From Gemmatimonadaceae bacterium (GTDB lineage: Bacteria > Gemmatimonadota > Gemmatimonadetes > Gemmatimonadales > Gemmatimonadaceae), in assembly GCA_036504815.1 (NCBI GenBank), contig DASXUN010000021.1, positions 310,001-374,000 on the forward strand: DNA of 64,000 nt, read 5' to 3'. Positions 4,940 to 24,315 of this stretch are shown here, piece after piece. Every line of letters begins with the position of its first letter. Within the stretch, counting starts at the first letter, position 1. A program made the translations under genes and the position numbers. A model generated the notes under the pieces. That model worked only from the letters and a program-made list of their open reading frames with translations, was not told the origin of the DNA and ran no database searches.

Positions 4940-4974
4940 GATGGCAGATGGCGGACGGCGGATGGCGGATGGCG
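4940..4974. repeat. Heptanucleotide tandem array (five GATGGCG-type units)
   Basis: Units read GATGGCA, GATGGCG, GACGGCG, GATGGCG, GATGGCG, a strict 7-base period. The array starts 9 bases upstream of the MFS start codon, so it would lie in that gene's 5' leader, where a ribosome site is expected and absent. Confidence 0.8.
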
Positions 4975-5036
4975 GGAGAAGATGGGTCGAAGGGGTGCGG
5001 AGCGTGAGGGGGAGGGAAAAACGGAGGGTCGCCCCC

Positions 5037-5065
5037 TTGGCCCAAGGCCTTGGCCTGACTACAAT
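5037..5065 (+). promoter_or_regulatory. Probable sigma-70-type promoter of tRNA-Phe
   Basis: TTGGCC at 5037-5042 and TACAAT at 5060-5065 are separated by 17 bases. The -10 box is a 5/6 match to consensus and the -35 is 4/6. The transcript would begin a few bases before the tRNA at 5076. Confidence 0.6.
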
Positions 5066-5075
5066 TACGGACTGC

Positions 5076-5148
5076 GGCCAGGTAGCTCAGTTGGTAGAGC
5101 AGCAGACTGAAAATCTGCGTGTCGGCAGTTCGATTCTGCCCCTGGCCA
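5076..5148 (+). tRNA. tRNA-Phe (anticodon GAA)
   Basis: A complete cloverleaf: acceptor GGCCAGG pairs with CCTGGCC, D-arm GCTC..GAGC, anticodon stem GCAGA/TCTGC with loop CTGAAAA (anticodon GAA at 5109-5111), T-arm GGCAG TTCGATT CTGCC, discriminator A. The 3' CCA is not encoded. An excellent promoter-like sequence lies just upstream and a repeat-built hairpin just downstream. Confidence 0.97.
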
Positions 5149-5156
5149 TACAAGCA

Positions 5157-5286
5157 GAGAAACAACAGAAAGACAACAGAGAAACAACAGAGAGACAACA
5201 GAAGACGGGGCGAAATTGGCTCCCGGGTCTGTTGTCTCTCTGTTGTTTCTCTGTTGTTTCTCTGTTGTTTCTCTGTTGTCTTTCTG
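5157..5286. repeat. Inverted pair of 12-base tandem arrays downstream of tRNA-Phe
   Basis: The left arm (5166-5201) is a run of GAGAAACAACA-like 12-base units. The right arm (5229-5286) is its reverse complement, longer by two units. The 36-base left arm pairs essentially perfectly with the outer and inner parts of the right arm around a loop of about 27 bases. The structure begins eight bases after the tRNA ends, so it would be transcribed with the tRNA precursor and could act as its terminator or processing signal (inference). Confidence 0.85.
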
Positions 5287-5629: not shown

Positions 5630-6955
5630 ATGCGATCAGGCCGCACGATGCTGGCGTCCGGAGCAGTCGCGCTGTTGCTGTTGGCCAATCCGTTGTCCGC
5701 ACAAAACCCGGTGGGTCCCGCCCGCGATACGGTGCAGAACGCGGCGTTGCGAGCCTATCTGGATTGTCAGGAATGGGGATGCGATCGCGACTTCCTGGTC
5801 ACCGAAATGAAGTGGGTGAACTGGATGCGCGAGCGGCTGGACGCCGAGATCCACGTGCTGGTCACGTCCGCCGCGACCGGCTCGGGGGGACGCCAGTTCA
5901 CCGTGGTGACAATCGGGCAGAAGCAATATGCCGGCGTCGCCGACACGCTGACGTATACGGCCAATGCGAACGACGCGGATGACACCCGCCGGCGCGGGCT
6001 GCTGCGGGTGATCAGCCAGCTGCTGCTCCCGTACGCGGCACGCACACCGCTGGGACCCCGGCTGAGCGTATCGTTTGCGGCTCCGGCGACGAATGATGCC
6101 GCGCCGGGCGCTGCGGCGCGGGACAAGTGGAACTTCTGGACCTACAGCATTTCCGCGAACGGCTATGGGAGCGGCGAGAAGCGGCAGTCTTTCGAGAACC
6201 TCTGGAGCAGTCTCTCCGCCAACCGCACGACCGAGACGTGGAAGATCAGGCTCAGCGGAAATTTCTCGTATGACCAGTCGTCGTTTTCGTTCAGCAACGG
6301 CACGAAGTACTCGACGCTGCAGCGCAGCTTCGGCCTGAGCAGCATCGTCGTGCGGAGCCTCGGCGCCCACTGGTCCATGGGCGGCAAGGCGCAGGCGGAC
6401 CGGTCGGATTACTACAACACGAATGCCAACATCGTGGCCGGGCCGGCCGTCGAGTGGGATTACTACCCGTACAAGGAGTACACCCGGCGCCGGCTGACCG
6501 TGCTTTATTCGGTGGCCGTGCAGCACTACGACTACCGGGAAACGACCATCTACAACCGGGACCGCGAAACGCGGCCGATGCACTTTCTCGCGGTGGGGCT
6601 CAGCAAGCGGCAGCCATGGGGATCGGCGAGCGCCTCACTGACGGGTTCGCAATTTCTCAACGCGCTCAAGCACTACAACGCGAGTCTCAACGGCGGCGTG
6701 GATGTTCGGCTCGGCAAGGGCTTCAGCGTGAACCTGTACGGCAACCTGGCGCGTGTCCGCGACCAGCTCTACCTCCCGCGCGGCGAAGCAACCGACGCGG
6801 ATGTCATCGCCCGGCAGCAGGCGCTGTCCACGAACTATCGCTACTACGTCATGGCGGGGTTGCGCTACCAGTTTGGTTCGATCTTCAACTCGGTGGTGAA
6901 CCAGCGGTTCGGCGCGTTCGGGGGCGGGGGGAGCACGATGGTCATGAGTTTCTGA
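5630..6955 (+). CDS. Exported hypothetical protein, probable outer-membrane beta-barrel
   Basis: A 441-residue protein with a classical signal peptide (MLASGAVALLLLANPLSAQ). An N-terminal domain (about 30-150) holds the paired cysteines of YLDCQEWGCDRDFL and alternating strands (AEIHVLVTSA, RQFTVVTIGQ). The C-terminal two-thirds is rich in aromatic residues and alternating polar/hydrophobic strands (YYVMAGLRYQFGSIFNS), as in outer-membrane barrels. No named family recognised. Start: ATG at 5630 gives the signal peptide; an upstream GTG in frame does not. A 10-base tandem repeat begins five bases past the stop. Confidence 0.75.
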   Translation: MRSGRTMLASGAVALLLLANPLSAQNPVGPARDTVQNAALRAYLDCQEWGCDRDFLVTEMKWVNWMRERLDAEIHVLVTSAATGSGGRQFTVVTIGQKQYAGVADTLTYTANANDADDTRRRGLLRVISQLLLPYAARTPLGPRLSVSFAAPATNDAAPGAAARDKWNFWTYSISANGYGSGEKRQSFENLWSSLSANRTTETWKIRLSGNFSYDQSSFSFSNGTKYSTLQRSFGLSSIVVRSLGAHWSMGGKAQADRSDYYNTNANIVAGPAVEWDYYPYKEYTRRRLTVLYSVAVQHYDYRETTIYNRDRETRPMHFLAVGLSKRQPWGSASASLTGSQFLNALKHYNASLNGGVDVRLGKGFSVNLYGNLARVRDQLYLPRGEATDADVIARQQALSTNYRYYVMAGLRYQFGSIFNSVVNQRFGAFGGGGSTMVMSF

Positions 6956-6960
6956 ACGGC

Positions 6961-7040
6961 AGAGTACGACAGAGTACGACAGAGTACGACAGAGTACGAC
7001 AGAGTACGACAGAGTACGACAGAATACGACGGAATACGAC
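6961..7040. repeat. Tandem array of eight 10-base units (AGAGTACGAC)
   Basis: Six perfect AGAGTACGAC units (6961-7020) are followed by AGAATACGAC and GGAATACGAC, so the array decays at its right end. It fills most of the gap between the barrel-like gene and the aminotransferase. Confidence 0.97.
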
Positions 7041-8453: not shown

Positions 8454-8482
8454 TAGCGTATTGATACTAAATGGCGCCACGC
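8450..8482. repeat. TTAGTA-n9-TACTAA element, copy 1
   Basis: TTAGTA (8450-8455) and TACTAA (8465-8470) form an inverted repeat followed by AATGGCGCCACG. Nearly the same 32 bases recur at 20281. This copy contains the aminotransferase stop codon. Confidence 0.75.
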
Positions 8483-8666
8483 TGGGCTTTTTCATTACGG
8501 AGGCACGGAGGAAAAGCCGAGGGCCACGGAGGAACTGCAACTTCTTGGGGGAACAGCGCGCGCCACGCAGAGTTTTGCGTGGCGCGATGTCGTTCTCCTT
8601 AGTTGTGGTGGTTCTCCGTGGCCCTCTGGCAGTTTTCCGTGCCTCCGTGGTGAAAAACCCAGCGCT
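8482..8666. repeat. Long imperfect palindrome between convergent stops
   Basis: The arms of roughly 85-90 bases pair with a few mismatches. The outer arms carry GGAGGCACGGA and GGGCCACGGAG with complements CCGTGCCTCC and CCGTGGCCC. The centre is a perfect 11-base stem CGCGCCACGCA/TGCGTGGCGCG. It fills the whole space between the aminotransferase and dehydrogenase stop codons and could terminate both transcripts. CACGGAGG-type repeats, read as HHGGTE in translation, are scattered in many genomes from my general knowledge. Confidence 0.9.
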
Positions 8667-12280: not shown

Positions 12281-12400
12281 GAGTGCAAGGGAACGGGCAC
12301 GGTGGGGTGCAGGGGCACGGGCACGGTGTGGTGCACGGGAAGGGGCACGGTGTGGTGCGCGGGCGCGGTGTGGTGCGGGGGGTGGGGGGAGGGGGGTAAA
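12281..12400. repeat. G-rich tandem repeat (GGGCACGGTGTGGTGC type) in a divergent gap
   Basis: Repeated units such as GGGCACGGTGTGGTGC recur four or five times with drift, ending in a GGGG-rich tail. The tract occupies the space between two divergently transcribed genes. Closely related sequence is found at 45164-45215. Confidence 0.85.
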
Positions 12401-24249: not shown

Positions 24250-24253
24250 TACG

Positions 24254-24295
24254 GGCAGACGGGAGACGGGAGACGGGAGACGGGGGACGGAAGAC
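24254..24295. repeat. Heptanucleotide tandem array (six GGGAGAC-type units)
   Basis: GGCAGAC, GGGAGAC x3, GGGGGAC, GGAAGAC: strict 7-base period, 42 bases, starting 5 bases upstream of the phosphoesterase start codon on the minus strand. Confidence 0.9.
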
Positions 24296-24315
24296 GGTCA
24301 GGGGCCGGCGAGGGT

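What the first reader, a model, noticed from the sequence alone, without database searches (positions are those of the whole stretch)
5157..5286. Inverted pair of 12-base tandem arrays beside tRNA-Phe
Seen: a 36-base run of GAGAAACAACA-like units, a short spacer, then the reverse complement run, longer by two units. Copy-number asymmetry between arms shows each arm expanded or contracted independently while the sequence stayed matched, which is hard to explain by simple slippage alone. It starts eight bases after the tRNA. Inference: transcribed as a long hairpin that ends or processes tRNA-Phe, or it marks a site where a tandem array was inverted by template switching.
Basis: partly seen in the sequence, partly recalled or inferred. 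Interest (0 to 1): 0.62.

Follow-up and report, generated by a model that had tools for sequence, protein, structure and literature searches.

The report
Repeat-armed hairpin after tRNA-Phe gene
Right after a tRNA gene lies a long DNA hairpin whose two arms are tandem copies of one 11-letter word; it is one of dozens of such hairpins that sit at gene ends throughout one bacterial genus, probably to stop transcription, and related species use different words at the same spot while keeping the two arms matched.

Summary
The inverted pair is real but is misdescribed. The unit is 11 bp, the arms are 48 nt (5155-5202) and 59 nt (5228-5286), so they differ by one unit, and the left arm starts 6 nt after tRNA-Phe. 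It folds far better than shuffles (z -14.7). It belongs to a family: about 180 unit hits in this genome, found only in one Gemmatimonadota genus (6 of 298 phylum genomes sampled). Arrays with 7- and 10-bp units share the architecture. The arrays abut transcript 3' ends (60 of 83 11-mer arrays within 20 nt; 8% expected), including several tRNAs. All 63 inverted pairs put the purine-rich arm first. Arms match in unit family in 58 of 63 pairs (permutation maximum 38). At orthologous sites, species carry different units, yet both arms match. The tRNA-Phe core hairpin covaries. Best reading: a two-way 3'-end hairpin, probably a terminator, whose stem is built from tandem repeats. Termination is untested, and the 7-mer relatives lack a U-rich arm. 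Arm-to-arm template switching is not supported at fine scale. The closest known kind is the Xanthomonas/Nostoc GGGNATC repeats, which also prefer four units, sit after stop codons and pair inversely. Here the four-unit preference appears in a unit that cannot form a G-quadruplex.

The parts
5037..5065 (+). promoter-like site of tRNA-Phe (TTGGCC-17-TACAAT)
   Evidence: consensus scan, 1 found vs 0.3 expected; a similar TANAATTACGG-type motif lies upstream of tRNA-Phe in the related species. Inferred promoter.
5076..5148 (+). tRNA-Phe (GAA)
   Evidence: ARAGORN; Rfam RF00005, 73.2 bits
5155..5202 (+). left, A/purine-rich arm: 4 units of CAGAGARACAA type plus CAGA
5203..5227 (+). spacer/core; remnant of the GC-rich terminator-like core seen in orthologues (weak hairpin in this species)
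   Evidence: fold; orthologous cores aligned
5228..5286 (-). right, U/pyrimidine-rich arm: reverse complement of 5 units plus 4 nt
6956..7040 (+). second array of the same general kind: 10-bp unit ACGACAGAGT, 8.5 copies, starting at the stop codon of ORF 5648-6955, no second arm

Best explanation
The feature is one copy of a genus-specific family of hairpins whose arms are short tandem arrays. They are placed directly after the 3' ends of transcription units, both protein genes and tRNAs. Here it marks the end of tRNA-Phe and most likely acts as its terminator and 3'-end hairpin. RNA polymerase first transcribes the A/purine-rich arm, then the core, then the U-rich arm. As the U-rich arm emerges it pairs back with the A-rich arm, which pulls the transcript off its weak U-rich hybrid, and the repeated U-rich units offer several release points. 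Because the reverse strand reads the same way (A-rich arm first, U-rich arm second), the element works in both directions, which suits the convergent gene pairs where the 11-mer form is most often found. Shown: anatomy, family, fixed polarity, 3'-end adjacency, arm-family matching, core covariation, genus restriction. Inferred: transcription, termination, two-way action.
For: Position: 60 of 83 11-mer arrays begin within 20 nt of a sense 3' end (2 of 83 antisense; 8.1% of random intergenic 48-mers). Arrays directly follow tRNA-Cys, tRNA-Phe and tRNA-Leu here, tRNA-Gly in G004 and tRNA-Phe in G001. Polarity: purine arm first in 63 of 63 pairs; the reverse layout is found 0 times in the whole genome. 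Arm family matches in 58 of 63 pairs; permutation mean 25.2, maximum 38. 17 of 32 paired 11-mer elements lie between convergent genes. At the tRNA-Phe and DEAD-box-helicase sites, related species carry different units, but the arms match each other wherever both are present. The tRNA-Phe core is 97% paired with 8 two-sided changes vs 3.2 in shuffles, and sliding by one column drops pairing to 45-53%. 14 of 28 11-mer cores beat at least 95% of their shuffles. In some copies the A-rich array precedes an ordinary GC hairpin plus T-tract (G004 C21 76963 and 104270).
Against: No RNA data. The consensus scan found no canonical terminator at this element, and the U-rich arm holds only about 5 T in 8. 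The 7-bp-unit relatives (GATGGCG...CGCCATC) share the layout but have no U-rich arm, so intrinsic termination cannot explain the whole class. A few arrays stand alone without a hairpin (window 6956-7040; C21 479618 and 543129), and two lone T-rich arrays lie between same-strand genes (C21 162803; G005 L227). Some orthologous 3' ends have no array at all (G003, G007, G009).
Confidence: 0.62

Rival explanations
1. The element does not end transcription. It is a 3'-end protection hairpin (REP-like) that blocks 3' exonucleases or aids tRNA 3' processing, with termination elsewhere.
For: Very stable stem at the 3' end. The 7-mer relatives have a similar layout but no U-rich arm.
Against: U-rich 3' arm in the 11-mer copies; conserved terminator-like GC core at tRNA-Phe; nearest + strand gene 362 nt on, with no other + strand terminator seen in between.
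Confidence: 0.2
2. DNA-level role: cruciform or protein-binding site between convergent genes (supercoil relief, nucleoid or uptake signal like the Neisseria DUS), with no RNA function.
For: Dispersed repeat with species dialects, as DUS has; DUS pairs also act as terminators (PMC2397512).
Against: Strong sense-strand bias at 3' ends and single sense arrays after genes; units are tandem and variable, unlike a fixed recognition word; absent from whole species of the genus (G002, G007).
Confidence: 0.1
3. Neutral by-product: slippage and fold-back template switching at pre-existing terminator hairpins inflate their stems, with no added function.
For: Unit counts differ between orthologues; cores are ancestral while arms are young. 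One locus, G006 next to the DEAD-box helicase, carries the same ACTACAG variant in the inner units of both arms, as arm-to-arm copying would give.
Against: The same unit recurs around dozens of unrelated cores, which local slippage does not give. Copy number peaks at 4.4 units for both 7- and 11-mers instead of decaying. Little fine-scale arm-to-arm likeness.
Confidence: 0.2

Closest known systems
GGGNATC heptamer repeats of Xanthomonas and Nostoc (Rehm et al. 2015, PMC4692102)
   Same: Dispersed intergenic tandem arrays; preference for four units; sense strand close to stop codons; scarce between divergent genes; 70-75 inverted pairs in each Xanthomonas genome; unit differs between lineages
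   Different: The 11-bp unit here has no G-tract, so the authors' G-quadruplex reason for four units cannot apply; arrays also follow tRNAs; several unit families in one genome; arms co-replaced between species; an ancestral GC core lies between the arms
Cyanobacterial STRR (short tandemly repeated repetitive sequences)
   Same: 7-bp-type tandem repeats between genes; one described near a gene's 3' end as a possible hairpin terminator (PMC2670836)
   Different: In what I read: single arrays; no matched inverted pair around a core and no strict polarity reported
Neisseria DNA uptake sequences in inverted pairs as Rho-independent terminators (PMC2397512)
   Same: Dispersed genus-specific word, inverted pairs acting as terminators, species dialects
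   Different: Single copies per arm, not tandem; an uptake function is known there, none tested here
Bidirectional intrinsic terminator between convergent genes
   Same: Position, A-rich side then U-rich side, GC core
   Different: Stem extended to about 50 bp by tandem units; U-tract interrupted; 7-mer relatives lack U

Membership tests
GGGNATC-type four-unit intergenic repeats (Rehm class) | dispersed intergenic tandem arrays with a preference for four units | tested here: met
   11-mer arms: 27 of 62 are 47-49 nt (4 units + 4); 7-mer arms: 31 of 51 are 30-33 nt; TRF copies peak at 4.5 for both
[quoted passage not shown]
GGGNATC-type four-unit intergenic repeats (Rehm class) | G-tracts able to form G-quadruplexes | tested here: not met
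   the unit CAGAGARACAA holds no GG
Intrinsic (Rho-independent) terminator | hairpin at a transcript 3' end with conserved pairing | tested here: met
Intrinsic (Rho-independent) terminator | uninterrupted U-tract directly after the stem | tested here: not met
   scan finds none at the element; about 5 T in 8 inside the right arm
Intrinsic (Rho-independent) terminator | RNA 3' ends at the site | not testable with these tools
   no transcript data held
DNA uptake sequence (DUS/USS) | fixed word promoting DNA uptake | not testable with these tools
   no uptake data
Curated Rfam RNA family | covariance model match over the element | tested here: not met
   only the tRNA matches in the window

The most novel reading that the evidence does not exclude
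A dedicated copying process writes arrays of about four sense-oriented units after transcript ends, using existing arrays elsewhere in the genome as template, and rewrites both arms of a terminator hairpin in the genome's current unit 'dialect'. That would give concerted replacement of dispersed non-coding repeats between species while the hairpin core stays.
Probability: 0.13. Interest if true: 0.85.

Novelty: new variant of a known kind. Interest (0 to 1): 0.56.

Why it matters
Four-unit intergenic arrays beside stop codons were explained in Xanthomonas and Nostoc by the four G-tracts of a G-quadruplex. Here a unit without G-tracts shows the same copy-number preference, position and inverted pairing in an unrelated phylum, so that explanation is incomplete and the cause of the 'rule of four' becomes testable. 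The genus also offers a natural experiment: orthologous gene ends with different repeat words in matched arms, and some with none.

Tried and rejected
Canonical terminator scan: nothing at the element. Rfam: only the tRNA. Local arm-to-arm copying as the reason for matched arms: hardly any signal. Single mobile element: rejected because cores differ from locus to locus and arrays abut different genes without constant flanks. Assembly artefact: rejected because the family recurs in separately assembled genomes, although some contigs do break inside the hairpin (G010:C73, G000:C15 end). Heptamer-run counting of units (first part) mixed in off-phase matches and is not used; TRF lengths are. My LepB query carried a few wrong residues at its start; the matches begin after them.

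Full report
Observation. The sequence holds tRNA-Phe at 5076-5148, then a 6-nt gap, an array of 11-bp units at 5155-5202, a 25-nt spacer, and the inverse array at 5228-5286. Unit and arm sizes in the finding need correction (11 bp; 48 and 59 nt; one unit difference). As RNA the element folds at -94.1 kcal/mol; shuffles reach -38.0 +/- 3.8.

It is a family. The pattern ACAACAGANANACAACAGA occurs 88 + 92 times in the 3.5-Mb genome. In 298 genomes spread over the phylum it occurs only in this genus: G000 180, G005 304, G004 172, G008 167, G001 17, G003 1, none in G002 and G007, none in any genome of another genus.

Layout. In about 2.2 Mb read from five species there are 63 inverted pairs of purine-rich arrays. 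All have the purine-rich arm first and none the reverse; whole-genome patterns agree (20 forward and 20 reverse matches to a palindromic pattern against 0). Unit families are 11-, 10- and 7-mers. The two arms belong to the same family in 58 of 63 pairs; permuting right arms within species gives a mean of 25.2 and a maximum of 38 in 10000.

Position. 60 of 83 11-mer arrays start within 20 nt of the 3' end of a gene on the purine strand (median 3 nt), against 2 of 83 on the other strand and 8.1% of random intergenic pieces. Several tRNAs are followed by an array in the same way, so the rule concerns transcript ends, not stop codons. The bias is weaker for 7-mers (13 of 31 against 2 of 31). In convergent pairs the two arms abut the two stop codons and fill the gap.

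Comparison of species. Behind tRNA-Phe, G010 has the same unit as the window (its contig breaks after the core); G001 has AGAGAGAAAGC-type units in both arms; G002 and G005 have ACGACAG-type units upstream of the core; G003 and G006 have degenerate 7-mers upstream of the core. The core hairpin between them is homologous in G002, G003, G005, G006 and G010 and covaries (97% paired cells; 8 two-sided changes vs 3.2; six short sequences, so modest evidence), though in the window it has decayed. In G001 the element fills the gap to a convergent gene ending RAAAMDPIEALRYE*, a typical MacB/FtsX permease end (own reading of the sequence). Behind the DEAD-box helicase, G000, G005, G008 and G010 use ACAACAG in both arms, G001 and G004 use GAGAAAAAGCA in both, G002 uses GAGCGCAC in both, G006 has ACAACAG outside and ACTACAG inside in both, and G003, G007 and G009 have no array. 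So arms are replaced together while the place and the hairpin stay. At fine scale, however, arms of one element are barely more alike than arms of different elements.

Copy number. Arm lengths peak at 47-49 nt for 11-mers (27 of 62) and 30-33 nt for 7-mers (31 of 51): in both cases about four units plus a few bases. A rule in units, not in bases, is unexpected under free slippage. The same preference for four is published for GGGNATC repeats in Xanthomonas and Nostoc, where it was ascribed to G-quadruplexes (PMC4692102). The present unit has no G-tract.

Mechanism. The most economical reading is a two-way terminator and 3'-end hairpin whose stem was extended by tandem units: A-rich arm, core, U-rich arm on either strand. 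Transcription and termination are inferred, not shown. The 7-mer elements, which lack a U-rich arm, mean that either two functions share one layout or the shared function is hairpin-based 3'-end definition or protection. How one unit comes to surround dozens of unrelated cores is not explained by slippage and remains open.

Verdict. The element works like a bidirectional terminator. As a repeat it is a new variant of the four-unit, stop-adjacent intergenic repeats; it is not a member of the G-quadruplex class as defined, because the G-tract test is not met.

Noticed in passing
window 8454-8666 and about a dozen other convergent gaps on G000:C21 (e.g. 251409-251638, 265309-265553, 394048-394275): A second dispersed family: near-perfect palindromes of about 190 nt (CACCACGGAGGCACGGAGG...GCGCCACGC / GCGTGGCGC...CCTCCGTGCCTCCGTGGTG) filling gaps between convergent genes, folding at about -0.65 kcal/mol per nt. 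Their arms contain repeated CACGGAG words, so they may be another dialect of the same architecture.
   Followed up: partly
window 6956-7040: Array of 8.5 copies of ACGACAGAGT starting directly at a stop codon, with no second arm and no hairpin.
   Followed up: partly
window 12283-12381: 24-bp array (GGGCACGGTGTGGTGCA type) in a gap between divergent genes, the opposite context from the 11-mers; similar arrays recur on C21.
   Followed up: no
window 4940-4975 and 24251-24297: 7-bp arrays (GATGGCG; ACGGGAG) of the same families that elsewhere form inverted pairs.
   Followed up: no
G000:C21 530271-530335: A predicted beta-lactamase-like gene reads into the array, giving a protein tail KTTEKQQRDNR encoded by the repeat.
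   Followed up: no
G010:C73 and G010:C4 starts; G000:C15 start: Contigs break inside these hairpins, so draft genomes will under-count them.
   Followed up: no
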